Source: Hexactinellida sp. DTS-2022 (taxonomy: Eukaryota; Porifera; Hexactinellida). Taken from it: a DNA stretch of 64,000 bases. This document shows, one piece after another, positions 15,494-60,733 of this stretch. Below the pieces are notes generated by a model that saw nothing but the letters and a program-made list of their open reading frames with translations, was not told the DNA's origin and searched no databases. Position 1 is the stretch's first letter. Each line of letters starts with the position of its first letter. The translations under genes were made by a program, and so were the position numbers. Location of the stretch: assembly GCA_028753945.1 (NCBI GenBank), contig JAPNXP010000005.1, positions 4,154,001 through 4,218,000 of the forward strand. Reading direction: 5' to 3'.

Positions 15494-16276
15494 TCACTCA
15501 TTTCGTTCGAATACATAATCGCCTGGGCAAGTTTCCGTCCTCCGTGTACCTCTGTCATATTTTTGTTGCATATTTCGCTTACTGATCCGATCATTCTCTG
15601 CTGCCTGCTCCAGGAGCTCGGCCTTTAGCTTCACCAATCGCTCGACGTGTTGTTGGTGTGTCTCGTCAGGACCCTCCTTGTGAGTAGCAATCCAGGCATC
15701 AATAGGAGATGTAGGCTGTCTACCCGTGCTGAGTACATGGGCAGAGAATTTGGTTGATGAATTCTCGATGTTATTACAATAAAATGTAACTTCAGTCAAA
15801 ATACTGGGCCATGCGTCCTTGTCTAGATTTCTTTCGATAGTTAAGCACCTTGCAACTTGCTTTACGAGTCCGATACTCCGTTCTGCAAGTCCGTCTGCTT
15901 GAGGGTGGTACGGGGATGTATGCCGCTTTTCAATACCAAATTTATCGCACATTTCTCTAACCTCAGTACCGTCGACATTGTGAGCCTGATCAGTAAGTAT
16001 ACCTTTAGGCACCCCGTGACCCCGGAAAACCCAGCCGTTCTCGAACTCCTTAACGATTGAGGAGGCCTTTTGATCCTTTAACGGAATAGCCTCTATATAG
16101 CGCGTGAAGACATCCACAATACACAAAAAGTATCTATAGTTCTCATCAGACCATGGAAGTGTAGCTATATCCATAGCAATCAGGTCACCAGGTCCAATTC
16201 CACAAAATATCAAACTCTTCCATCGGTTGCCTAGGACTATTGGAGGGCTTAGCTCGTTGACAAGTAATACAATCAT
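15494..16276 (-). pseudogene. Integrase catalytic core (gypsy)
   Basis: This 260-residue frame carries the DDE core of a retroviral-type integrase. The first Asp is in MDIATLPW, the second in GILTDQAHNVDG, and the Glu in ADGLAERSIG after the usual HTSPYHPQ. It overlaps the RNase H/zinc-finger frame at 16185-16276 in a different phase, so a frameshift divides the integrase. The distal part (GDYVFERNE) precedes a stop. Confidence 0.85.
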
Positions 16277-17105
16277 TACAGAATACCTTCACGCTTCGAG
16301 CCATCCCCTTCCAAAAGAAATTCCGCTTCAGTAATTGTAAGGTTCTAGCCTTCCCAAAGTGCCGAGCTGCGTGAACCTCTGAAATTACTCTTGTTTGGGT
16401 ATTCTTTGGAATAACCAGACGCTCATCAAAATATAATAATCCGTTCCTAAGTTCAAGGTGCGTCGTCATATACTTAAGCAGTCCTGTCCTTACGCAACCT
16501 TCCCTAATAAGCTGCTCAGTTGCGCTAGACACCACCGGGTCCTCCTCCTGATCCTTCTTTATGTCTACCATTCTTTGGCAAATCTGCTCAGCAACAAATA
16601 TTTTCTCTTTAAACTTAGTTTCGTCTTGCACCAAAGCGTCGATCGGTTTGCCTGGAACCCGACTGAGGTAGTCGGGTAACAAATTCTGGGCCCCTGGTCT
16701 ATAGATGATTTCATAATCATACTCTTCCAGTTCTAATATCCAGCGCGCAAATGTACGGCGCGGGTCACGCTGGTTGCGGAGCCACAGTAAGGGATTATGA
16801 TCTGTTATTAGCTCGATCTTCTCCGACCCACGTAAATAAACGTTCCATTTCCTACAGGCCGCCACTAGCGCCCAGGTCTCCAGTTGTCCGGCAGAGTAGT
16901 TTCTCTGCGCTGGACTGAGAGATGAGGAGAAGTAATCAATCGGTCTGAGTTGACCCGTACGTTCATCTTTCTGAGATAATACCCCTGCAATACCATTAAC
17001 GCTTGCGTCTGTTTCCACTGTAAAGTTTCTCTCCCAGTTTGGAAATGCCAACATCACCGGGTTCCTTGACCAATTTGTCTCGTAACTTGCGAAATGTCCC
17101 TTCAC
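16185..17105 (-). pseudogene. RNase H and integrase zinc-binding domain (gypsy)
   Basis: Residues FTVETDASVNGIAGVLSQ give the first RNase H acidic residue, then LETWALVAA and ELITDHNPLLWL follow in order. Downstream, VHAARHFGKARTLQLL and FCNDCITCQRAK supply the H-H-C-C zinc site that starts integrase. The frame overlaps the RT ORF at 16996-17105 in another phase, marking a frameshift. Confidence 0.88.
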
Positions 17106-18315
17106 TATCTACTGACCATTCCCAGGTAGCCCCCTTTTCTGTCAATCGGTACAGGGGTCCAGCCAACTCTGCCAAATTCGGGATATAGGATCTGTAAAAG
17201 TTCAGGCTCCCGAGGAATCGCTGTAGTTCTTTCACACTAGTAGGTCTGGGAAAGTTTGACAATTTCTCTGCCGCGCTCGTCAAGGGTCTCCTACCGTCTT
17301 CAGATACTGAGTGCCCAAGGAACTCAACCTTATCATAACCCAGTTGGCATTTTCTAAATTTAATATGAATATTCGCTTGCTTCATTCTTTCCAGGACTTC
17401 TTGCAAGTCCACCAGATGCTGTTCAAATGTCTGCGAAAAAATGATGCAGTCATCTATATAAGACTCCGTATGTTTCAAGCCTTTCAAGGTGCTATCCATC
17501 ATTCGTTGGAATGTAGCTTGGGAGTTGACTAGACCAAAGGGCATCACTGTCATCTCATAAAGCCCTCTCGGGGTGTTGAACGCGGTCTTTTCCATGTCGT
17601 TATCTCTAACTGGTACGCACCAATATGCAGAGGAGATATCTATAACGGAGAAGTATTTGTAACCATGTAGCTTATCGAGGATAGACTGGATTTGCGGTAT
17701 ACTGTATGCATCCTTTTTTGTTACCTCATTGAGTTTTCTGTAGTCAATTGCAAAACGTTGCTTCCCATCCTTTTTGGAGACCAAAACTACATTACTAGAC
17801 CATGGTGAGTTTGACGGTCTACATAGTCCTTGTTCTAATAACTCGTCCAGTTGCCGGTTTATTTCTTCCTCCCATCTGGGCGGGAGTCTACGTGGTCGAT
17901 TCTTCACCGGCTGGGATTCCCCAGTATCAATCGCATGTTGACACACATTTGTCCGTCCTGGTCTCTCGTCGAAAATCGAATAATATTCTTCAACTAACCA
18001 AGTAAGTTTTCCCCATTGATTGGGCGTGAGTTTTGGATCAATGACTGGTTTACTTGTGCTTGTCGCTCGCTCTATGCTCAATACCTGTTTTGCTGTCTTT
18101 GCCCTTTCTAGGGGATCACCTCCGGTAGCTTTGGCAAAGATTGGTATTTTCGCATTCCCAAGGCCGACTGTACCCCTAGACCAGTCAAACGTTACACCAA
18201 CCAAAAAGCTGCATAAACTGCCGTCCCAGCAACAGTGCTTGTCCATCCCCTTCCAGTACTTGAATCCTTGACACCTTTGAACTCTCGTTAGTAATCTTGA
18301 TTGGGGCGTCCACAT
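16996..18315 (-). pseudogene. Reverse transcriptase (gypsy)
   Basis: This 439-residue ORF covers the full palm and fingers. FAIDYRKLNEVTKKDAYSIP lies at about 188-207, VIDISSAYW at 224-232 with catalytic Asp 226, the MPFGLVNSQATFQR block at 258-271, and YIDDCIIFS at 286-294 with the Asp pair 288-289. FLGHSVSEDG and VKELQRFLGSLNFYRSYIP follow as in other Ty3/gypsy members. The catalytic residues are intact; the lesion is at each end, where frames shift into the protease and RNase H ORFs. Confidence 0.92.
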
Positions 18316-18649
18316 ACCCTATTACTCGTACAGGCATATTGCACACTCCGAACACCTGACCCCTTGACGGCATTAACTTGTGTCCCAATTTTAGTTCTCG
18401 CATGGTACCGACGTCCATTACGTTCACTTTAGCTCCTGTATCGAGAAGAGCTCGAGTTGTTATTCCATTAACCTTAACAGAAACTGTTGCAGATCGTTCG
18501 TCCCAATTTTCTTCGCCCTCCACACAGAATACCTGTTTCGAACCTTGATATTCCCCCTTTTCATTTAATCTGCATTGATAGGTGTTGTGACCTCGACGGC
18601 CGCATTTGCTACAGGTTCTATCAGGACAAAATCTCCACAGATGACCCAT
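18185..18649 (-). pseudogene. Zinc knuckle and aspartic protease (gypsy)
   Basis: CSKCGRRGHNTYQC is a CCHC zinc knuckle. A second knuckle is split: CYTCGK lies in the upstream frame (18565-18858) and GHLWRFC in this one, placing a frameshift near 18645. RALLDTGAKVNVM holds the D-T-G of a retropepsin, with VIGYVDAPI and LLLGRQFM downstream as flap-side and C-terminal strands. Confidence 0.85.
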
Positions 18650-26858: not shown

Positions 26859-29340
26859 ATATAAATCTGCGTGGTAATATTAAACCATCTTCCTCTCAAA
26901 GTCCAATTTGTAGCGAAAATTCATTTGTATCTGCGGACCACAAATTAGAGGCAATTTTATTGCGTTTCTTTCCTCAATTTAATATTTATAACTAATCCAT
27001 TCTGAGTTCTGATTTGTTTATGTATGTATCACAATGCAATTTTATTGAGAATTATGGTATATAAGTTATTCTCAAGGCCATTGGTAGCGGTCAGGCTGGC
27101 CAGACCATGGCCTGACCGCCTTTCAGATAAGTGACCCCATCCAATTCTCCCGAACCCGTTCCCCTGACCCCAAACACTGGATGAAGCCTTACGGCCTGAC
27201 CACAGTCGAAAGGTTTCCTACGGCCCTGATTCTCATAACTTATAGCTATTAGTTAATTAATAGCACAATAGATTATTGAAGGGTAGCTCGTTTCAACTAC
27301 ATCAAAAGATTAGCTCGTCAGCACAAATAAACACTCATACTATATTAAAATTGTAATTTAAACGTGTGGCTAGTAATTCATAAGTGATTCATTCATTCAG
27401 TTAACAAAATATAAATAAAATAATTACGAAGTAGGTATTTTTAGTTCTCATAATGGAAAAATACTCATTGCATAGCTTGGAAAGGAGTTAAATTGTATAT
27501 TAAATCCAGATGATTAACCTCGATTGCTGTGTGTTTGTGTGTTTGTAAGTCCGGATAGTATTAAATTGGTAGGGGAATAGAAGCCGCATTTATAATTGCT
27601 ATATAAACTATTAGTTTCTATAGAAATTATAAATTCGGTTTCTATACTTAGATAAGTATGCTAAACAAAAATAGCTAAACAATTATTGAAAATTAAATAA
27701 ATCAAGAGAATAGCTTCGAACAAGATCATAAGTCAGCAAGATGTGATTCCGAATTTTGCTTTCATAACTTTCATTATGAATATACTTTAGTATGATGTCT
27801 TTGTGACAAAATAGGTAACCAAGCTGTGATTATTGTCGGTATATAATTATACAGAAAATTAAATGACAAAATTAGTACAATAGATATAAAATGATTCAAT
27901 AAGTAGATTTCGAATATTGAATGGATAATTTTCGAATATATATATGTATTGTAGTTATTTAAAAGAATTCGTTTATATGAATGATCTGTAAGAAGCAACC
28001 AGAATACACATTTGTTATGTAACCTAAGAATGTCAGAGTACGTAATAGTTTACATGGTAATAACTGGAAATCTAGGGAATTTTTCTTGGTTAATTATGTC
28101 AGCAAACAGAAATGGGGATATCCAAATAGTTTGAATAGTATTTAATTACAGTTAACAATAATTTTGACTATTATCAAATACAAATACGTTATATGAAATG
28201 GAGATGAGTTCGACAGCTTAGAGAGGGAGATATTTACCTTACGATTGTAATATAGCACCTCAGAGATGGTCAATTTGAGTTTCAAGGCCAAATATCTAAC
28301 GTCAAAATAATCACCCACCAAGCAAGCAGTGTAGAAATGAATAATTATAGATGAGTTTAATTTATTTATAAATGCGTGAAAATCCCGGGCCAACTTTGAC
28401 CAATGTGTCACTAGTTTAGTTGCCGCTAGTTCATTGGGGAAAGGGTGTCATAATATTAAGGAATTCCGAATTTCTTCATAATATGACTAGTCGAATTATG
28501 TAGGTTCTACTGTATGTTAAATTAGTTAATAAAGGTACAAATGCATATGGGCCAGAGATTTACCCTTTCTAAATATGTTGAAATAAATTGTATTTGCAAA
28601 TAGATTTGGAAATTTCCAATAGTTTTTTTTAAAGAATTGAATACTAATTCTAATATTTTAATTTTGATGTGATTCAAATGTATAATGCATACATCCACGT
28701 ACGCTAAAAAAGTACTCAAGACATACAATACTTGTATTTATCAAATGTATCTGACCATAGACATCGCTCATGGAGGGTCAGAGGCCACTCCTGCTAGATC
28801 TCTGTGCCAAAATGAATTTATGGCCCATTTTTGTCATTAGGTTAGTGCGAATGTACGTATGTTCTATTTCCCTGCTACTTATGTACAAGGAGAATAGAGA
28901 TATTCTTAGTCAATTTGTCCATAAGGCCCGAAATTTGATTTTCATAAATGGATGATGCGAAAAAATTCGCATTCACGAGTATAATAATTTTGGATAAATG
29001 TTCACGCTATGCCCTTCCGATCAAGGTAAATGTATTCGTCGTATTGAAGTGACCTTTGCGTAGAATTGTAATCACTCAAACCTCTGAGATACGGGCACCT
29101 CCCTCAACCGGGCAGCCCTATAGGTGTGAAGCCAAGCAAAATATGTATTCATTTTACCATTAATGGAGTTTAATGACAAAATTATATAATATATCAAATA
29201 CATATCTATTATTATCCATAACCCGTTAAAAACATCAGTTTTTATTTTTGAATGAATCTAGAAAATATGGATTAGACACTTTGGGGTTGTACATGCACTA
29301 GCCAATGTATTTCTGAGATCCGGGCACCCTCCGGACGACA
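26853..29340. repeat. Repeat unit C, copy 1 (2.5 kb)
   Basis: This block recurs in the same orientation at 57762-60681 with high similarity throughout, from ATATAAATCTG to the CCGGGCACCCTCCGGACGAC end. It carries stems such as GGTCAGG...CCTGACC near 27090 and short ORFs that are not conserved in frame. No protein was recognised. The other copy differs by two clean insertions, so this copy is the uninserted reference. Confidence 0.85.
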
Positions 29341-35630: not shown

Positions 35631-36839
35631 TATTTGAATAGGGCGTAAGAAAACCTATCGATTGATGTATAAATTATTTTAATCAGACGTCATCTGTATT
35701 TTTGTTTATGACGTCATCATAAATTTACTTTCGAGGGATTCAGCTGTTTATCACGACAAACGTCACTTTACTCGATTTGAATTATTATGTTGACCTTATG
35801 CATGTTATAAATAACTTCCGCAAAGGACGTACACACGTTTTCGCAATTTTCGGAACTATAATATAGACTAATACTTAGTAAATATACGACAATAATCCAC
35901 CGATACATATATTCCAATATGTCTGGTGAAAAGATTGTGCATTTTTTGAGATAAAAGCACCCAATTATGTACAGTTGTTGCATTTTAGCTACTGATCACC
36001 TTTAGCTATTGCGCATAGCCCAATTTATGGAAAAATGAAATATTCAGGGGGTCAAAGATTAGTGCCCAATGGAATTCTCCGGCAGTATGAACCAAGGATA
36101 GACCATTCAAATGCATTCATTTCGACTGTATATTGTCAGATTCGTCCTCAGCACTAAATTTCCAGCATTTGAGGGCAATATTTACTATATTTGGGGAAAT
36201 TATTCTTCGTTATTCCAGTGCAACAGTAGGAATGTTGTAACATTCCGATCTCAAAATTGCTACTAGCCATATCGAGTGATACCTTGTTTTCTCGGCTCTG
36301 CGTACTGGGTGCGACTTTTGCTATTAGAAACACTCTAAATCAGGGTTTTTTTAAGGTTGAGACCTTGGTGCAACTCAGCGCGGCCTTGGTGTAACTCAAC
36401 ACTGCAGAGGCTGCTGCCGACCCGAATCGTGGTGTAACTCCAAAAAATCTTAGTGCAAATTTTACACCAAGATCGGCCTTAAAAAAAACCCTGCTCTAAA
36501 TATTAAAAAGTATGCAGGATTTTATACAGAAAAGTTTCCTATGATTACTCATTAGCATCCTAGAAACAATCACATCGCCAACTGGGGGTCAGGGGGGCGC
36601 TGTTAGCCCTCCAGTGGGGTCCAGAGGCAAAGCCCCTGGAAGCCAGTAACAATACTAGAGTACTAGTACTAGATCCAGCAGTAGAGTGCTATTGCTATTC
36701 GCCAAGGAAAATAGGGGCGACGCCAGGATGCCCCATCCTCTGTATAAAACCCTGGTATGTATTGTTCCATATTCCTGCACAAGGCATAATGACCCAGAAA
36801 TTTTGATTCGGCATTTTCAACACCTATAATGCTTCAATA

Positions 36840-37014: not shown

Positions 37015-39076
37015 TAAAAGGGATTGTTTCAATAATATCATTTATGCAAGGTCCTTGTGTCTAATTAGCATCCATTGCTGAATTCTTTATCCAAAGTATC
37101 TATTTGCATGGCCGTAAATCCGTAAATAGTGGGAGGATGAAGTACCACACTTTATATTACTTATTAATAAAGATAAAATTCAAAAATAATATCAAAAGTA
37201 GACTGAAATTTCCATAGATCTTTCTAAGTATTTCAGATCTACTAGCAAATTCCCTTGCTAAATAATCAACGTATAGCTTTCAAATGCTATAATAATAGAA
37301 AGTTACAAATGCTATAATAATAGAAATACATTTGGCATTTTAATGCTGAAGATTTGTTTAGAAAGTAGTCGGAAGATACTCCATTAAGGCATCCTCTAAA
37401 CACAAAATGGGGGGTATGATTGTATGGAGCATCACATCCACTCCAAAGGATGGGGATATATCCCCCACCAATCCCCCCTGGATATACGCCCACGTCTATT
37501 TGGCATAATAGGCATTATTCTAGTTCAAATAATAATAAATTCTAACTACTTTCAGCAATTTATCGCTAATTAGACCAAGAACCTTGCATTAATAACATCA
37601 TTGAAAACAATCCCTTTTTTTGGAATATATTGAAGCATTATAGGTGTTGAAAATGCCGAATCAAAATTTCTGGGTCATTATGCCTTGTGCAGGAATATGG
37701 AACAATACATACCAGGGTTTTATACAGAGGATGGGGCATCCTGGCGTCGCCCCTATTTTCCTTGGCGAATAGCAATAGCACTCTACTGCTGGATCTAGTA
37801 CTAGTACTCTAGTATTGTTACTGGCTTCCAGGGGCTTTGCCTCTGGACCCCACTGGAGGGCTAACAGCGCCCCCCTGACCCCCAGTTGGCGATGTGATTG
37901 TTTCTAGGATGCTAATGAGTAATCATAGGAAACTTTTCTGTATAAAATCCTGCATACTTTTTAATATTTAGAGCAGGGTTTTTTTTAAGGCCGATCTTGG
38001 TGTAAAATTTGCACTAAGATTTTTTGGAGTTACACCACGATTCGGGTCGGCAGCAGCCTCTGCAGTGTTGAGTTACACCAAGGCCGCGCTGAGTTGCACC
38101 AAGGTCTCAACCTTAAAAAAACCCTGATTTAGAGTGTTTCTAATAGCAAAAGTCGCACCCAGTACGCAGAGCCGAGAAAACAAGGTATCACTCGATATGG
38201 CTAGTAGCAATTTTGAGATCGGAATGTTACAACATTCCTACTGTTGCACTGGAATAACGAAGAATAATTTCCCCAAATATAGTAAATATTGCCCTCAAAT
38301 GCTGGAAATTTAGTGCTGAGGACGAATCTGACAATATACAGTCGAAATGAATGCATTTGAATGGTCTATCCTTGGTTCATACTGCCGGAGAATTCCATTG
38401 GGCACTAATCTTTGACCCCCTGAATATTTCATTTTTCCATAAATTGGGCTATGCGCAATAGCTAAAGGTGATCAGTAGCTAAAATGCAACAACTGTACAT
38501 AATTGGGTGCTTTTATCTCAAAAAATGCACAATCTTTTCACCAGACATATTGGAATATATGTATCGGTGGATTATTGTCGTATATTTACTAAGTATTAGT
38601 CTATATTATAGTTCCGAAAATTGCGAAAACGTGTGTACGTCCTTTGCGGAAGTTATTTATAACATGCATAAGGTCAACATAATAATTCAAATCGAGTAAA
38701 GTGACGTTTGTCGTGATAAACAGCTGAATCCCTCGAAAGTAAATTTATGATGACGTCATAAACAAAAATACAGATGACGTCTGATTAAAATAATTTATAC
38801 ATCAATCGATAGGTTTTCTTACGCCCTATTCAAATATACAACTTTCATGTCATGGCGACATATAGATCAATAGTTATTACCGATAGTGTGAAAAATTAGT
38901 CGTGTGATGACGTCACCGTTTGTGTGAAAACCAACAAATTTCAAAATGTTGTCTGGACTTAAACTATTCCTAGTGACCTAAAGTATCAATTAAAACCTTA
39001 AAAAGTTTGGTTAGGCACTTCCTTAGATGGTTAGGGTTTTACCCTGTATATGTGGCCAGGGCACCTGCTACTGAGA

Positions 39077-54571: not shown

Positions 54572-55888
54572 CTAGAATAATTGTATATTGATGACTACGT
54601 TGAAGTGTTCAGCTAAATTTTCCAGATACAATGCAGTTTCTGTATTTTTTGTCAATGTAAAAGATGCGGGATATGTAAGCCATTCCATAGAATCCCCACT
54701 CTTTGCATAAACAACGATATCATGTTGAATAAGATTAGCTGTGGCCAGTATTTCTGCTTCGGTTGCCCAAACACCACTGGAGTCAATGGCACTTTCGCTG
54801 ACATAATTGGAAACCGTTTGAGAAAGATACTTTCTTAGTGTTTCACTCAAACTACCACTCATGTGATGGACGACTTTATTACGAGTTATAATATGGCTAT
54901 CTTCTGAACCTGTTAGGATGTAGCTTATTGATCGGAAATAGCAATTACCATCACCTTTAGTTCTGTATATCCGTGCGGGTTTAGATAGGTAGCCAGATTT
55001 TCCAAAGTATTGGGTCTTGCATATATTCAAGTTGAAAACTTTGGCAACTTTTTTTCTAGATTCAGCGGAAATTGGAGAAAACAGTCTGTTTGGGTTGAAT
55101 TGTTTAACTTCAATTAAAACTAGCTCATCCGTACACTCAAGTTTCTTAATCTTAGAATGTGATATTGAAGTTCTTCTCTTTTTCTTTGATTTACCATCTT
55201 CAGCTATATTATTTGAATCATAAACCTTCAAATTTGCAATATTATATATATTTTTTAGTTTCTTTCCTGTGTTGATATTCTCTAGGATTGCACGACCTTT
55301 ATCTAGCAACTCAATGATTTTATAAGGACCTATCCAGCGTGGTTCCATTTTCGATCCAATTCGATGTATTCGCTTCCTGTTTTTTATGTACACAGTCGCG
55401 CCAGGTGATAACACTTTACTATTAGAATGACGGTTATCAAAGTTGCGTTTTTGGTGTTTCTGTGCGTTTGTAATATTAAGATCAATTTTGGCGTTGATAG
55501 ATTCACGCATCACGTCAAGCACCTGTAAAACTTTTGAATTCACCTGCTCAATTGATTTTGGAGGTTTAATGGACAAATCAATTGGTAGCTTCGCACTACG
55601 ACAATACATCGCTTGAAATGGAGTACATTTCGTAGAAGCATGAATGCTTGTGTGATAAGCAAATAGTTTTCCTGGGATATAAATATCCCAATCATCACCT
55701 CTTTCATTTACCAATTTCGCCAATGCAGATTTCAGGGTACGGTTATCTCTTTCCCGTTGTCCATTTGTTTCAGGATGATAAGCAGAAGAAATTCGATGCT
55801 CAGTCTGCAGAATGTCAAGAAGATAATCAATAACTCCGTTCACAAATTCTCTTCCTTGATCACTTATCAGTGTGTCCATACATCCCAA
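54572..55888 (-). CDS. Integrase C-terminal half fused to an OTU protease domain
   Basis: This uninterrupted 438-residue ORF belongs to a Ty3/gypsy element. Residues 1-60 hold the second half of the integrase core: ISDQGREFVNG with Asp 10, then AYHPETNGQRERDNRTLK with Glu 46. EPRWIGPYKIIELLDKGRA (about 182-200) is the GPY/F module. After a basic linker (KSKKKRR), residues 307-430 read as an OTU cysteine protease: YRTKGDGNCYFRSISYILTG with Asp 313 and Cys 316, WATEAEILATA, and LAEHFNVVI with His 428. OTU domains cut ubiquitin chains; fused to an integrase one could process the polyprotein or protect it from host turnover, which is inference. The start is not real: integrase continues upstream in another frame (55900-56184). 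Confidence 0.85.
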   Translation of the reverse strand: MGCMDTLISDQGREFVNGVIDYLLDILQTEHRISSAYHPETNGQRERDNRTLKSALAKLVNERGDDWDIYIPGKLFAYHTSIHASTKCTPFQAMYCRSAKLPIDLSIKPPKSIEQVNSKVLQVLDVMRESINAKIDLNITNAQKHQKRNFDNRHSNSKVLSPGATVYIKNRKRIHRIGSKMEPRWIGPYKIIELLDKGRAILENINTGKKLKNIYNIANLKVYDSNNIAEDGKSKKKRRTSISHSKIKKLECTDELVLIEVKQFNPNRLFSPISAESRKKVAKVFNLNICKTQYFGKSGYLSKPARIYRTKGDGNCYFRSISYILTGSEDSHIITRNKVVHHMSGSLSETLRKYLSQTVSNYVSESAIDSSGVWATEAEILATANLIQHDIVVYAKSGDSMEWLTYPASFTLTKNTETALYLENLAEHFNVVINIQLF

Positions 55889-55899
55889 TCTGCAAACTA

Positions 55900-56184
55900 T
55901 TATGTTAGAAAATCAGCTACAGATTTAGAAGTTTTGTCAGGAATGGCAGTAGCTTCTGACCACTTGGAAAAGTGGTCTGAAATAGCTACAATATATTTGT
56001 TGCCACGTATAGTCTCCTGTAAGGGCCCAATGAGATCAATTCCTACAAGACTCCATACTTGAGATGGTACGCGTATCGAAGACAGCGGAGGTCGGTCCAT
56101 TTTAAGTTTTGGGTTGACTTCAAAACACTTGATGCATTGTTTACAATATATTTCAATTTCTTGCTTCATACCTAAAAAATACAT
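55900..56184 (-). pseudogene. Integrase zinc site end and first core half (gypsy 2)
   Basis: CKQCIKCFEVNPKLK supplies the C-C part of the integrase zinc finger and WSLVGIDLIGPLQETIRGNK the first catalytic Asp of the core. ISDHFSKWSEATAIPDKTSK follows as expected. The frame ends at 55900; the sequence continues in another phase at 55888, marking a frameshift within about 20 bases. Confidence 0.82.
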
Positions 56185-56356
56185 TTGGGAATCACATGAA
56201 ACTTTGTCTGTTACAAATTACAATTCCGAATCTTGAGAAATTTGACAACACCTATTGCAAAATAAACCCAGCTGTATTAACAACGGTCTAACAATTGATT
56301 GTAGGTAAGTTAGCATCGCCTAATAAACGAATTTACGTAAGCTTTAATATGCCAAC

Positions 56357-56512
56357 CATAGGCGTCGTAAATTCAAAGGTCAATCCATCGGGCCGCCCGG
56401 AAATTCCGGGTAATGTCCGGGTAAACTCGGAGTATAGTGTTAGTAGCATGGGGACAATCCCTTCGGCCCGCCCGGACATTTCCGGGCACCCGGGCGGTTT
56501 ACGACGCCTATG
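56357..56512. mobile_element. hAT-type miniature element (CATAGGCGTCGTAAA ends), copy 2
   Basis: Ends CATAGGCGTCGTAAA and TTTACGACGCCTATG, exact 8-bp duplication ATGCCAAC on both sides. It lies inside gypsy 2, between the two halves of the integrase zinc-binding region. Same family as 13589-13724. Confidence 0.95.
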
Positions 56513-56539
56513 ATGCCAACAGTTGTATTGCGCTACCCA

Positions 56540-56850
56540 TTAGGTGCGAAAGTTTGCTCCCGGATTGAATGTTAAATTAAGTATTAGTAAATATTTACCT
56601 TTCCAGTAGAATCTTGATGCGATCTTCTGGTAGGTTTTGTCACGACCAAAATGACCACCGGTTACAGGGTTATCATGACACATTTTGAGTACTGCATCCA
56701 CTCCACTTTTTCGTAACACTTGCTTTTCAGCATGCATCAGAATCCCATCCTTCAAAGTATATGGCTTAACAGTTTGTCGGAATGATTTTTTCGCATTGAC
56801 TCGTTTTTCAGGTGGAAGTTTATAGATCTCTTCTGGATATTTGTTTTCGT
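56540..56850 (-). pseudogene. Integrase N-terminal region (gypsy 2)
   Basis: The minus strand reads EEIYKLPPEKRVNAKKSFRQ, TVKPYTLKDGILMHAEKQVL and VTGGHFGRDKTYQKIASRFY, giving the His side of the zinc site and the basic linker that normally precede integrase. Upstream of 56851 the hammerhead element interrupts it, and no RT or RNase H was found beyond, so the retrotransposon is truncated. Confidence 0.75.
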
Positions 56851-56857
56851 TAGATAT

Positions 56858-57093
56858 GTGATGACGGGCTGACAGGAGTGCACTAGAGGGATCCTAGTGT
56901 AGGTGGGTTATGCTTAGTACCTGTGGTAGGAGAACGGCATGGCTCACTGGTAACTAGAACTGGAGTAGACCAGTTGCAGTGTGGTCGAGGGTTACCCTCC
57001 TGATGAGTCCTTGTGATAGGACGAAACCACTACCCATCACACGTTGCTCTCGGTGAGTGTGGGATACATATTACGGTGTCTCATGCTCATCAC
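56858..57093 (+). mobile_element. Hammerhead-ribozyme element 1 (236 bp)
   Basis: The element runs from GTGATGACGGGC to GCTCATCAC and is flanked by AGATAT on both sides (56852-56857 and 57094-57099). Its ends are short inverted repeats (GTGATGA). It carries a hammerhead ribozyme in its middle, a hairpin with arms CACTAG and CTAGTG near the left end, and no ORF. It inserted into the gypsy 2 integrase region. Length, ribozyme and lack of coding suggest a non-autonomous element that moves through RNA, as proposed for retrozymes; terminal inverted repeats are not typical of those. Confidence 0.75.
56981..57030 (+). ncRNA. Hammerhead ribozyme 1
   Basis: Parts in order: GTGG (stem III), T, cleavage base C (GTC triplet), hairpin GAGGG-TTA-CCCTC (stem I), core CTGATGA, hairpin GTCCT-TGTGAT-AGGAC (stem II), core GAAA, CCAC (stem III). 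All invariant core bases of the family are present. Stems I and II are closed and stem III is open, the type III arrangement. Stem III has only four pairs plus the core A-U, so cleavage may need a dimer. Confidence 0.9.
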
Positions 57094-57099
57094 AGATAT

Positions 57100-57289
57100 A
57101 AAAAAAATGCAATATTTGATTGTAGAGTTGATCATCCATCAAAACAATGTAGTAAATATATTTGGTAGATCAAACAAGTAATTATGCTCTTCTATATTTA
57201 TAGTAGTTGAAACAGCAATATAGACATCGTAAGAGTCGCCGCCACACGCATTGCTAGTATTCTATAAACAAATAACATCATAATTTGCT
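57100..57289. other. Stretch without a gene
   Basis: AT-rich sequence between the hammerhead element and the GCTAGCC repeats. It may be the decayed left part of gypsy 2 but no domain is legible. Confidence 0.4.
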
Positions 57290-57679
57290 GACCATTAACT
57301 CCGGGGTATAATCTGGGCTAGCCCAGACTATACCTGGGGTTAATTTAGGCTAGTCCAGATTAACCCCCAAAAGGGGGTTAATCTGGGCTAAAGGGTATAA
57401 TCTGGGCTAGCCTAAATTAACCCCAGGGCTTAATATGGGCTAGCCTAGTTTATATGTGGGGGTTAATCTAGGCTAGCCCAGATTATCCCTGGGGTTGAAC
57501 TGGGTGGGGAGGTTAATCTAGGCTGTTACACCGGGCCGCGGTTAGAAATTTTGGCCCGCGTGCAACTCTGATACATTGGCATTATCAAGTGAGATAAGAC
57601 TGGTTGATCCTTAACAGATCAGTCTAATTCATGTATTATTGAATATATCCTGCTAATTATTGGCTAATAATATTAGTTA

Positions 57680-57765
57680 TTACCAGCCCTTCGGTCTCGA
57701 TAGCGTCGCGAGGATTCGGCGCTTCGCCTCTTATCTAACGGCCGATACGCTGCCGTTCCTCATTA
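57680..57765. repeat. Small-hairpin array, family H, copy 5
   Basis: CAGCCCTTCGGTCTCG is followed by ATAGCGTCGCGAGGATTCGG, CGCTTCGCC and CGGCCGATACGCTGCCG. The order matches the other family H copies, with compensating-looking changes in some stems. It adjoins the start of repeat unit C. Confidence 0.6.
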
Positions 57766-59421
57766 TTTTTTAATATAAATCTGGGTGGTAATATTAATAC
57801 ATCTTGCTCTCAAATTCCAATTGTAGCCAAAATTTATTTGTATCTGCGGACCACAAATTAGAGGCAATTTTATTGCGTTTCTTTCCTCAATTTACTATTG
57901 ATAACTAATCCATTCTGAGTTCTGATTTGTTTATGTATGTATCACAATGTAATTTTATTGAGAATTATGGTATATAATTTATTCTCAAGGCCATTGGAAG
58001 CGGTCAGGCTGGCCAGGCAATGGCCTGACCGCCTTTCAGAAAAGTGACCCCATCCAATTCTCCCGAACCCGTTCCCCGGACCACCAACACTCGATGAAGC
58101 CTTACGGCCTGACCACAGTCGAAAAGTTTCCTACGGCCCTGATTCTCAAAACTTTTATCTATTAGTTAATTAATAGCACAATAGATTCTTGAAGGGTAGC
58201 TCGTTTCAGCTACATCAAAAGATTAGCTCTTCAGCACAAATAAACACTCATATATTAAAATTGTAATTTAAACGTGTGGCTAGTAAATTATAAGTAATTC
58301 ATTCATTCAGTTAACAAAATATAAATAAAATAATTACGAAGTAGGTATTTTTAGATCTCATAATGGAAAATACTCATTGCATAGCTTGTAAAGGAGTTAA
58401 ATTGAATATTAAATCCAGATGATTAAAACTCGATTGCTGTGTGTTTGTGCGTTTGTAAGTCCGGATAGTATTAAATTGGTAAGGGAATAGAAACCGCATT
58501 TATAATTAAATTGAATATTAAATCCAGATGATTAAAACTCGATTGCTGTGTGTTTGTGGTTTCTATACTTAGATAAGTAACAAAAATAGCTAAACAATTA
58601 TTGAAAATTAAAATGAACCAAGAGAATAGCTTCGAACAAGATCATAGGTCAGCAAGATGTGATTCCGAATTTCGCTTTTATAACTTTCATTATGAAAATA
58701 CTTTAGCATGTTGTCTTTGTGACAAAATAGGTAACCAAGCTGTGATTATTGTCGGTATATAATGATATAGAAAATTAATTGACAAAATTAGTACAATAGA
58801 TAAATGAATAAAATGATTCAATAAGTAGCGTAGATTTCGAATGTTGAATGGATAATTTTCGAATATATATATGTATGTATTGTAGTTATTTACAAGAATA
58901 AGTTTATATGAATGATCTGTAAGAAGCAACCAGAATACACATTTGTTATGTAACCTAAGAATGTCAGAGTACTTAATAGTTTATATGGTAATAACTGTGA
59001 ATCTAGGGAATTTTTCTTGGTTTATTATGTCAGCAAACAGAAATGGGATATCCAAATAGTTTGAATAGTATTTAATTAGAGTTAAAACAATAATTTTGAC
59101 TATTATCAAATACAAATACGTTATATGAAATGGAGATAAATTCGACAGCTTAGAGAGGGAGATATTTTCCTGCGATTGTAATATAGCACCTCAGGGATGG
59201 TCAATTTGAGTTTCAAGGCCAAATCTCTAACGTAAAATATTCACCCGGACCAAGCAAGCAGAGTAGAAATGAATAATTATAGACGAGTCAAATTTATTTA
59301 TAAATGCGTGAAAATCCCGGGCCAACTTTGACCAATGTGTCACTAGTTTAGTAGCCGCTAGTTCATTGGGGAAAGGGTGTCATAATATTAAGGAATTCCT
59401 AATTCCTTCATAATATGACTA

Positions 59422-59580
59422 CAGTTGAAACCGGATATTTTTAACACCGGATATTTTTAACACATTTTCTTGTAAATAATTAATTATTGTTGTTGTTATA
59501 AAATCGGATATTTTTAACAATCGGATATTTTTAACAAATTTTCGTGTAAAGAATGTGTTAAAAATATCCGGTTTCAACTG
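59422..59580. mobile_element. pogo-like miniature element (CAGTTGAAACCGG ends)
   Basis: The ends CAGTTGAAACCGGATATTTT and its inverse are flanked by TA. The empty site at about 28485 reads GACTAGTCGAATTATG without it. TCGGATATTTTTAACA-type units repeat inside. Confidence 0.95.
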
Positions 59581-60280
59581 TAATCGAATTATGTAGGTTC
59601 TACTGTATGTTAAATTAGTGGATAAAGGTACAAATGCATATGGCCCAGAGATTTACCCTTTCTAAATATGTTGAAATAAATTGTATTTGCAAATAGATTT
59701 GGAAATTTCCAATAGTTTTTTTTTAAGGAATTGAATACTAATTCTAATATTTTAATTTTGATGTGATTCAAATGTATACATACATCCACGTACGCGAAAA
59801 AAGTACTCAAGACATACAAATACTTGTATTTATCAAATGTATCTGACCATAGACATCGCTCATGGATGGTCTGAGTGCACTCCTGCTAGATCTCTGTGCC
59901 TAAATGAATTTATGGTCCATTTTTGTCATTTAGGTTAATTCGAAATTATATAATGTATGTTCTATTTCCCTGCTACTTATGTACAAGGAGAATAGAGATA
60001 TTCTCAGTCAATTTGTCCATAATGGCCCCGAAATATGATTTTTATATTTGGATGATGCGAAAAAATCCGCCATCACGAGTTAATAATTTTGGAGAAATGT
60101 TCACAACTTCGAACGCCGGGCCCTTCTGATGAAGGTAAATGTATTCATCCGATTGAAGTGACCTTTGCGTAGAATTGTAATACACTCAAACCTCTGAGAT
60201 ACAGACACCTCCCTCAACCGGGCAGCCCTATAGGTGTGAAGCCAAGCAAAATATGTATTCATTTACCATTAATGGAGTTT

Positions 60281-60504
60281 GTAATAACGTTGTTATCAAC
60301 TATGATCTGTAGCCTAGCCAACAAGGTTGACTAGTGGGGTTTCGTTCCATTACAGGAACTCATCAGGAGGGTGACCCTCGACCCCATGACTCCATTACAT
60401 CTAGTGGGTAGTCACGCTTATCGCCACGGTGTCTCCATTACGACCACTCGTGCCTCCTGCCGGTATAGTAGTCCCTGACTACTACCGGCCCCGATACTAC
60501 AGAT
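60281..60504 (-). mobile_element. Hammerhead-ribozyme element 2 (224 bp)
   Basis: Compared with the uninserted copy near 29167-29175 (GGAGTTTAATGAC), the extra block runs from GTAATAAC to CTACAGAT, with TTT on both sides. ATCTGTAG and CTACAGAT form inverted repeats at 60305 and 60497. On the minus strand it carries a full hammerhead motif. Read in ribozyme direction both elements start near ATnTGTnnTnnCGGG and end ACAGAT, so they are probably one family although the bodies differ. No ORF. Confidence 0.8.
60335..60386 (-). ncRNA. Hammerhead ribozyme 2
   Basis: On the minus strand: TGGGG, T, C, hairpin GAGGG-TCA-CCCTC, CTGATGA, hairpin GTTCC-TGTAAT-GGAAC, GAAA, CCCCA. Relative to ribozyme 1, pairs in stems II and III change on both strands (GTCCT/AGGAC to GTTCC/GGAAC; GTGG/CCAC to GGGG/CCCC), so the fold is kept by compensating changes. 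This is strong evidence of selection on structure. Confidence 0.92.
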
Positions 60505-60733
60505 TTTAATGACAAAATTATATAATATATCAAATACATATCTATTATTATCCATAACGGCATAACCCGTTAAAAACATCAGTTTTTATTTTTGAATGAA
60601 TCTAGAAAATATGGATTAGACACTTTGGGGTTGTACATGCACTAGCCAATGTATTTCTGAGATCCGGGCACCCTCCGGACGACCAGGGGCGGCGCCAAGG
60701 GGGTGCTAGGGGGTGCTACGGCACCTCCTGAAA

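What the first reader, a model, noticed from the sequence alone, without database searches (positions are those of the whole stretch)
56981..60386. Two hammerhead ribozymes in one short-element family, with compensating stem changes
Complete hammerhead cores (CTGATGA, GAAA, GTC cleavage triplet) occur at 56981-57030 (plus) and 60335-60386 (minus). Stem I is nearly constant (GAGGG/CCCTC) while stems II and III differ by paired changes that keep the fold. Both are type III in layout with 4-5 bp stem III. They lie in short non-coding elements of 236 and 224 bp with short inverted ends. Known animal hammerheads sit mainly in tandem satellites, retrozymes and Penelope-like elements, mostly type I; single-copy elements with inverted ends do not obviously match those. 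This is the best candidate here for an undescribed system.
Basis: partly seen in the sequence, partly recalled or inferred. Interest (0 to 1): 0.88.

Follow-up and report, generated by a model that had tools for sequence, protein, structure and literature searches.

The report
Plant-style retrozymes in an animal genome
Two self-cutting RNA motifs in this window sit in the end repeats of small parasitic DNA elements of a design so far described from plants, here spread through the genome of an animal that is probably a glass sponge.

Summary
Both type III hammerheads are real (RF00008, 57.1 and 57.7 bits); 253 intact cores occur genome-wide, control 0. They do not belong to one family: element 1 (56857-57094 +, 238 bp, 4-bp duplication GATA) and element 2 (60280-60501 -, 222 bp) read as solo LTRs of two families alike only in the ribozyme (81%; bodies 49%, shuffled 44-46%). 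A paralogue in the window is the empty site of element 2. Complete relatives L069, L070 and L071 show LTR-PBS-149 bp-PPT-LTR with exact 5-bp duplications. Their PBS fits the host's own tRNA-Ser(GCT) over 18 nt; others fit tRNA-Gly(GCC). A gypsy-like element shares LTR termini, PBS and PPT. Element 2's family thus has the build of plant LTR retrozymes; in element 1's family no tRNA site was recognised. Predicted RNA units are 371-380 nt. The host is an animal, probably a glass sponge. The papers I saw describe animal retrozymes as non-LTR, type I, without PBS or PPT. Cleavage, circles and mobility are inferred, not measured.

The parts
56857..57094 (+). Element 1: solo LTR of family A, 238 bp, ends TGTGATGA...TCATCACA
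   Evidence: family matches. Two further loci (L040, L041) share its flanks.
56853..56856 (.). Target-site duplication GATA, left copy of element 1
57095..57098 (.). Target-site duplication GATA, right copy of element 1
56979..57032 (+). Type III hammerhead of element 1; predicted cleavage after 56986 (GTC)
   Evidence: RF00008, 57.1 bits; cleavage site from the known hammerhead chemistry, not measured
60280..60501 (-). Element 2: solo LTR of family B, 222 bp, ends TGTAGTATC...CGTTATTACA
60334..60387 (-). Type III hammerhead of element 2; predicted cleavage between 60380 and 60379
   Evidence: RF00008, 57.7 bits; cleavage not measured
60275..60279 (.). Target-site duplication GAGTT of element 2 (plus-strand left copy)
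   Evidence: empty-site comparison
60502..60506 (.). Other copy of the duplication, GATTT (4 of 5 bases)
28488..29339 (+). Paralogue of the flanks of element 2 without the element: empty site, single target GAGTT at 29166-29170
   Evidence: (91.5% and 95.1% identity of the two flanks)

Best explanation
The two elements are solo LTRs of short non-coding LTR retrotransposons that carry a type III hammerhead in each LTR, that is, LTR retrozymes. SHOWN from sequence: LTRs with TG...CA ends; in complete family B copies a site complementary to a host tRNA after the 5' LTR, a short internal region and a polypurine tract before the 3' LTR; target-site duplications (4 bp in families A and C and in one D copy, 5 bp in B); one empty site; a gypsy-like element with the same LTR termini, primer site and a like polypurine tract. 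INFERRED: the element is transcribed; [quoted passage not shown] a host ligase closes it; the circle, primed by tRNA-Ser(GCT) or tRNA-Gly(GCC), is reverse transcribed for more than one round by the enzyme of a gypsy-like element; its integrase inserts the LTR-flanked cDNA; recombination between LTRs leaves solo LTRs such as those in the window. For element 1's family the primer step is unknown. I put the LTR-retrozyme build at about 0.93 for element 2 and 0.85 for element 1, the circular-RNA route at about 0.7.
For: Direct LTR pairs with outer duplications: L069 GTTAC, L070 ACATG, L071 ACATG (5 bp), L100 CTAT, L065 AAAC (4 bp). LTR pairs nearly identical: L069 217 matches, 4 mismatches, 2 gap columns; L070 220, 2, 1; L100 300, 2, 0. 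Family A: 15 of 31 delimited instances have an exact 4-bp duplication, shuffled mean 0.98, maximum 5 of 2000 shuffles; 30 of 31 keep the hammerhead pattern (L039-L041 share flanks and L058/L059 list one dimer twice, so 27 insertions, 13 with duplication). Empty site of element 2. tRNA-Ser PBS: 10 places, control 0; one fitting tRNA 3' end in the genome, called tRNA-Ser(GCT). tRNA-Gly PBS: 12 places, control 0, 10 of them in retrozymes; one fitting tRNA-Gly(GCC). Partner: L092 and L106 carry 169-bp LTRs identical to each other, beginning TGTAGTA and ending ACGTTATTACA as family B does, with the same PBS, a GGAGGGAGGAG tract and a reverse-transcriptase domain. Ribozyme kept between families whose bodies are at the shuffled level; double changes in stems II and III.
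Against: No RNA evidence of cleavage, circles or expression. In families A and C I recognised no tRNA site. The two LTRs of L071 differ (190 matches, 29 mismatches, 22 gap columns) although its duplication is exact, which neither the linear nor the circular model predicts simply. The inverted copy L078 has no matching outer duplication. Only 3 of 8 delimited family B solo LTRs have an exact 5-bp duplication and one shuffle extreme also reached 3. Pfam did not recognise the presumed gag frames. The gypsy-like partner was read only at its ends. Family D hammerheads score below Rfam's gathering score (35.0-39.8 against 48.5).
Confidence: 0.78

Rival explanations
1. An ordinary miniature LTR retrotransposon (TRIM) in which the hammerhead is a passenger or a brake: mobility uses uncut linear RNA with the usual strand transfers, and self-cleavage only trims or limits transcripts.
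For: All other parts are those of a TRIM; nothing here shows a circle. In family A private changes fall on the ribozyme about as often as elsewhere (5 over 52 sites, 17 over 184).
Against: The ribozyme is the only long stretch kept between families A, B and C and shows compensating changes; a brake would be lost easily. Minority states in family A are fewer in it overall (7 over 52 sites against 109 over 184; linked sites, no test made).
Confidence: 0.17
2. Miniature inverted-repeat DNA transposons moved by an integrase-type transposase such as the integrase-OTU gene beside element 1.
For: TGT...ACA ends, short imperfect inverted ends, 4-bp duplications in family A, an OTU-domain gene that reads like an integrase gene at 54572-55888 (OTU by Pfam; integrase by eye), and inverted composites with exact outer duplications (L026, L066, L072, L073).
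Against: Direct LTR-PBS-internal-PPT-LTR copies with outer duplications, tRNA complementarity, and gypsy-like shared termini. A DNA-only element has no evident need of a conserved ribozyme.
Confidence: 0.03
3. Contamination or a very recent transfer of plant retrozymes.
For: The anatomy is the plant one; transfer of type III elements between distant organisms has been suggested in print (PMC7761336, passages).
Against: Copies lie on many of the large contigs and are diverged into families; primer tRNAs and gypsy-like partners are in the same genome. Plant PBS are for tRNA-Met (PMC7761336, passages), these are not. An old transfer is not excluded.
Confidence: 0.02

Closest known systems
Plant LTR retrozymes (Cervera et al. 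2016, PMC4918200: abstract and passages, section 10)
   Same: Type III hammerhead in each of two LTRs, TSDs, PBS, PPT, no coding capacity, termini like Ty3/gypsy elements, almost no similarity between families outside ribozyme and terminal boxes.
   Different: Animal host; PBS for tRNA-Ser or tRNA-Gly instead of tRNA-Met; predicted unit 371-380 nt instead of 600-800; LTRs of 222-325 bp and internal regions of 73-149 bp, both shorter; 5-bp TSDs in family B; families A and C without a recognised tRNA site.
Metazoan non-LTR retrozymes (Cervera and de la Pena 2020, PMC7229834: abstract, passages)
   Same: Non-coding animal elements with hammerheads; predicted small RNA units (170-400 nt there, 371-380 here).
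   Different: Those have type I hammerheads in tandem repeats and lack LTR, PBS and PPT; these have type III hammerheads and all three (family B).
TRIMs of animals, Helenus and Ajax (PMC10886601, passages)
   Same: Miniature LTR retrotransposons of animals with PBS, PPT and 4- or 5-bp TSDs, moved in trans.
   Different: Their LTRs carry tRNA- or 5S-rRNA-like sequence; the passages seen mention no hammerhead in them.
Penelope-like elements and Terminons with hammerheads (PMC7761336, passages)
   Same: Hammerheads in repeats of animal retroelements.
   Different: Those carry minimal type I motifs in autonomous elements; here type III motifs in non-coding elements.

Membership tests
LTR retrozyme (plant kind) | Type III hammerhead inside each of two direct LTRs | tested here: met
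   L069, L070, L071 (family B) carry two RF00008 matches over the cut-off, inside LTRs. L100 (D) has two below the cut-off. The window copies are single LTRs.
LTR retrozyme (plant kind) | PBS complementary to a host tRNA just after the 5' LTR | tested here: met
   Family B: 18 nt to tRNA-Ser(GCT) or tRNA-Gly(GCC) of the same genome. Applies to element 2's family. The published plant tRNA is tRNA-Met: that detail is not met.
LTR retrozyme (plant kind) | PBS, for element 1's family (A) and for C | tested here: inconclusive
   No tRNA site seen by eye; a palindrome begins in the LTR end instead. L065 is the only direct-pair family A copy that I delimited with outer duplication, and its 5' LTR end is altered.
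LTR retrozyme (plant kind) | Polypurine tract before the 3' LTR | tested here: met
   AAGGTGAGAGGAG in L069-L071, GTAGGGAAGAGTGA in L100, GGAAGGGAACCTGA in family A copies L065, L073, L074; by reading.
LTR retrozyme (plant kind) | Short TSD of LTR-retrotransposon size (4 bp in plants) | tested here: met
   4 bp: A 15 of 31 rows, C 4 of 16 rows, D L100. Family B has 5 bp (L069-L071; 3 of 8 solo rows; empty site).
LTR retrozyme (plant kind) | Termini shared with a Ty3/gypsy element | tested here: met
   Family B only: L092/L106. No partner was found for A, C, D; none was searched for beyond the PBS and PPT patterns.
LTR retrozyme (plant kind) | Self-cleavage and accumulation of circular RNA | not testable with these tools
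   Needs RNA.
Metazoan non-LTR retrozyme | Type I hammerhead in tandem repeats without LTR, PBS, PPT | tested here: not met
   Type III, dispersed copies with LTRs. RF00163 had no match, but no control rang either.
Terminal-inverted-repeat DNA transposon (MITE) | Mobile unit bounded by inverted repeats, no direct LTRs, PBS or PPT | tested here: not met
   Direct LTR pairs with PBS, PPT and outer duplications.
Host: animal, glass sponge (Hexactinellida) | Nearest relatives of host genes | tested here: inconclusive
   Animal: RPL17 groups in Metazoa, 91/93. Glass sponge: the 3 named of 24 fucosyltransferase relatives are Oopsacas minuta, 61, 62 and 51%. No Oopsacas name among the 120 RPL17 rows listed; no Wnt candidate, which alone says nothing.

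The most novel reading that the evidence does not exclude
LTR retrozymes are not a plant speciality but an older or repeatedly arising kind of eukaryotic element that also lives in an early-branching animal. In this sponge it has split into branches moved by at least two integrases (4- and 5-bp duplications), two tRNA primers, and a tRNA-free branch (families A and C) that primes from a hairpin formed at the LTR end, making viroid-sized (371-380 nt) self-cleaving RNA circles.
Probability: 0.3. Interest if true: 0.85.

Novelty: new variant of a known kind. Interest (0 to 1): 0.72.

Why it matters
The papers that I saw in part divide hammerhead retroelements neatly: plants have LTR retrozymes with type III ribozymes, animals have non-LTR repeats with type I (PMC7229834, PMC7761336), and a 2024 review says complete LTR retrozymes were identified only in dicots (PMC11722881, passages). 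Type III LTR retrozymes in an animal, with the host's own tRNA primer sites and a gypsy-like partner, break that division. They give a second system in which to test the circular-RNA model of mobility, and bear on where LTR retrozymes and viroid-like circles came from. One paper raised that spread of repeats might need a type I layout (PMC3088659, passages); these dispersed type III repeats speak against that as a general rule.

Tried and rejected
One-family reading: rejected by the comparison between families. MITE or integrase-transposon reading, suggested by the TGT...ACA ends and the gene beside element 1: rejected once direct pairs with PBS, PPT and outer duplications were read. Type I or Penelope reading: RF00163 gave no match, but nothing rang in the controls, so I rest on the type III layout. 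Host by karyotype papers: none of the 10 sponge genomes listed fits 112.4 Mb in 18 contigs. Wnt search: 0 candidates, uninformative alone; a paper on glass sponges without Wnt signalling (PMC5684314) was seen only as a listing. A scan of viral contigs for the ribozyme found 0. The broad pattern (2890 matches against 1112 in its control) is too noisy for counts.

Limits: one search scored 68 of 12319 first-look candidates, 64 of them over the cut-off; searches scored 40 of 319 and 40 of 262; these are lower bounds. 30 of the 50 matches were fetched; L063 was not delimited. In one search the hammerhead was cut too long for L043 and L067 and not found for B_L077; the figures that I quote are for the two window elements. 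In one search my patterns did not delimit 5 of 13 loci in the B scan and 18 of 30 in the C scan (several of those 30 belong to other families); 3 of the 16 C rows have no hammerhead and some rows overlap. The mature end of tRNA-Ser was set by its acceptor stem; ARAGORN's end runs two bases further. Gag-like reading of L090 and L093-L096 is by eye.
Full report
Observation. cmscan of the whole window finds exactly two matches over a gathering score, both Hammerhead_3: 56979-57032 (+) and 60334-60387 (-). The genome that holds the window (112.4 Mb, 18 contigs) has 253 exact matches, 128 forward and 125 reverse, to an intact core with stem II, and 0 to the same pattern read backwards. A covariance-model search scored 68 candidates, 64 over the cut-off; 12319 first-look candidates existed, so this is a lower bound. 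On 45 distinct hammerheads 91.2% of cells pair (0 of 500 shuffles reach it), 59 cells are doubly changed (shuffled mean 29.1) and 7 pairs have double changes, against at most 12 doubly changed cells in slid versions.

What the elements are. Element 1 is 56857-57094, 238 bp, with ends TGTGATGA and TCATCACA and a 4-bp duplication GATA. From 30 loci, fetched of 50 genome matches, 31 instances of this LTR were delimited: 30 of 31 keep the hammerhead pattern and 15 of 31 have an exact 4-bp duplication, against a mean of 0.98 and a maximum of 5 when flanks are shuffled 2000 times. L039 (the window copy), L040 and L041 share flanks, and the dimer of L058 is listed again as L059, so these are 27 insertions, 13 with the duplication. 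Element 2 is 60280-60501 (-), 222 bp. Another stretch of the window, 28488-29339, is the same flanking sequence without it: the empty paralogue reads TTAATGGAGTTTAATGAC, the filled one TTAATGGAGTT, element, GATTTTAATGAC. That is a 5-bp duplication of GAGTT with one later change. Outside the ribozyme the two elements are 49% identical, near shuffled sequence (44-46%), while the ribozymes are 81% identical. So there are two families, called A and B here.

Complete copies. L069, L070 and L071 carry two direct family B LTRs round a 149-bp internal region, with exact 5-bp duplications outside: GTTAC, ACATG, ACATG. One base after the 5' LTR comes TGGCGACGAAGGTGGGAT; just before the 3' LTR AAGGTGAGAGGAG. 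Family D (L098, L100, L104) has, in L100, LTRs of 302 bp, an internal region of 73 bp, a 4-bp duplication CTAT and a hammerhead with a GTA triplet (by reading); D hammerheads score 35.0 to 39.8 bits, below the gathering score of 48.5. Family C (for example L011, L036, L079) has LTRs of 272-325 bp and 4-bp duplications in 4 of 16 scanned rows. Among family B solo LTRs 3 of 8 delimited rows have exact 5-bp duplications; the shuffled mean is 0.38 but one extreme also reached 3. In family A, L065 is a direct pair with outer duplication AAAC, its 5' LTR altered at the 3' end and in the ribozyme core.

Primers. The family B primer site is found at 10 places with up to 2 mismatches, 0 in the control. 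The 3' end of a tRNA that would fit occurs once in the genome with up to one mismatch, and ARAGORN calls it tRNA-Ser(GCT). With CCA added at the end given by the acceptor stem (ARAGORN's end is two bases longer) it is complementary to the site over 18 nt. Other B copies (L077, L078, L099, L105) and L098 of family D have TGGTGCATTGGCCGGGAA, complementary over 18 nt to tRNA-Gly(GCC), again a single match; L100 and L104 differ from it by one and two bases. Of 12 places with this site 10 lie in retrozymes and 2 (L101, L102, two mismatches each) in another repeat.

Partner. Of the 10 tRNA-Ser sites, 4 are in retrozymes (L069, L070, L071, L091). After the other 6 I read gag-like or pol sequence (L090, L092, L093, L095, L096) or a decayed remnant (L094), by eye. 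L092 has a reverse-transcriptase domain (RVT_1, E 1.5e-10); Pfam did not recognise the presumed gag frames. About 3 kb away on the same strand L106 holds an LTR identical to that of L092 (169 of 169 bases) behind GGAGGGAGGAG; it begins TGTAGTA and ends ACGTTATTACA, as family B does. The stretch between was not read.

Host. RPL17 in L007 groups inside Metazoa (91/93, unresolved within) in a tree of 28 rows. A fucosyltransferase gene of the window has 24 relatives in the protein database; the three with names are from the glass sponge Oopsacas minuta, at 61, 62 and 51% identity. Against a quick verdict: no Oopsacas name is among the 120 RPL17 rows listed. I take an animal as well supported and a glass sponge as likely.

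Mechanism. Shown: the anatomy, duplications, empty site, tRNA complementarity, shared termini, and a ribozyme kept between families whose bodies have diverged. Inferred: transcription, cleavage in both LTRs, release of a unit of 371, 372, 380 or 375 nt (L069, L070, L071, L100), closure, tRNA-primed reverse transcription in trans, integration. The L070 unit folds more stably than its shuffles (z -5.2); the L100 unit, given rotated by a few bases, likewise (z -3.0). In family A private changes hit the ribozyme about as often as the rest (5 over 52 sites, 17 over 184), whereas all minority states are fewer in it (7 over 52, 109 over 184). That fits selection on source copies and not on dead ones, but sites are linked and I made no test.

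Comparison. Plant LTR retrozymes have the same plan: type III hammerheads in LTRs, 4-bp duplications, PBS, PPT, Ty3/gypsy-like termini, and almost no other similarity between species (PMC4918200, abstract and passages; section 10). Animal retrozymes are described as non-LTR, type I, without LTR, PBS or PPT (PMC7229834, passages; PMC7761336, passages; PMC11722881, passages). I saw no report of LTR retrozymes in animals in five searches of the library (which listed 20 of 24, 20 of 56, 20 of 119, 20 of 33 and 30 of 904 papers); most were seen as listings only, and the library holds open-licence papers. PMC7761336 mentions type III hammerhead elements in insects without describing them in the passages seen, so an earlier report may exist. 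Element 2's family meets the tested features of an LTR retrozyme except the detail that the plant primer is tRNA-Met. Element 1's family is filed with it by ribozyme, LTR ends, duplication and polypurine tract; its primer is open.

Results that do not fit. The two LTRs of L071 are of different subfamilies although its duplication is exact. In families A and C a palindrome begins in the last bases of the LTR and folds as a strong hairpin (L079, L066, L026: z -6.4, -7.8, -7.2). Inverted LTR composites have exact outer 4-bp duplications (L026 CGTA, L066 ATAT, L072 CATG, L073 CTAG), as has a head-to-tail LTR dimer (L058 CTCC); the inverted B copy L078 has none. Priming from the hairpin would explain the inverted composites; this is a guess.

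Verdict. The ribozymes are real and the elements identified: LTR retrozymes, a known kind, in an animal, for which the papers seen describe another kind. The catalytic and mobile steps remain to be shown.

Noticed in passing
L026 1385-1878; L066 1226-1744; L072 67-505; L073 56-505: Inverted LTR composites with exact outer 4-bp duplications; where the LTR end is followed by a palindrome it folds as a strong hairpin. Possible self-priming.
   Followed up: partly
L058 (reverse strand 1501-1975): Head-to-tail dimer of two family A LTRs with two bases between and one outer duplication CTCC, no internal region.
   Followed up: partly
L071 62-670: Complete family B element whose two LTRs belong to different subfamilies, yet with an exact 5-bp duplication.
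   Followed up: partly
L098, L100, L104: A fourth family with a longer stem I and a GTA triplet (by reading) that scores below the Rfam gathering score, so family searches with that cut-off miss it.
   Followed up: partly
L079: Five family C hammerheads in 2.2 kb in both orientations: nested direct and inverted copies.
   Followed up: no
window 35631-36839 and 37628-38836: A 1209-bp inverted repeat, 100% identical; looks like a DNA transposon with long terminal inverted repeats.
   Followed up: no
window 54572-56893 (-): Gene with an OTU domain whose other parts read like an integrase, beside element 1; L040 and L041 carry the same flanks with the same inserted LTR, so that repeat was copied after the insertion.
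   Followed up: partly
window 15494-18649 (-): Gypsy-type reading frames: protease, reverse transcriptase, RNase H, integrase zinc-binding and core domains. The tRNA-Ser and tRNA-Gly PBS cores were not found in the window.
   Followed up: partly
LTRs of families A and C, upstream of the hammerhead: ACTGGTAAC recurs in both families (by eye); perhaps a promoter piece.
   Followed up: no
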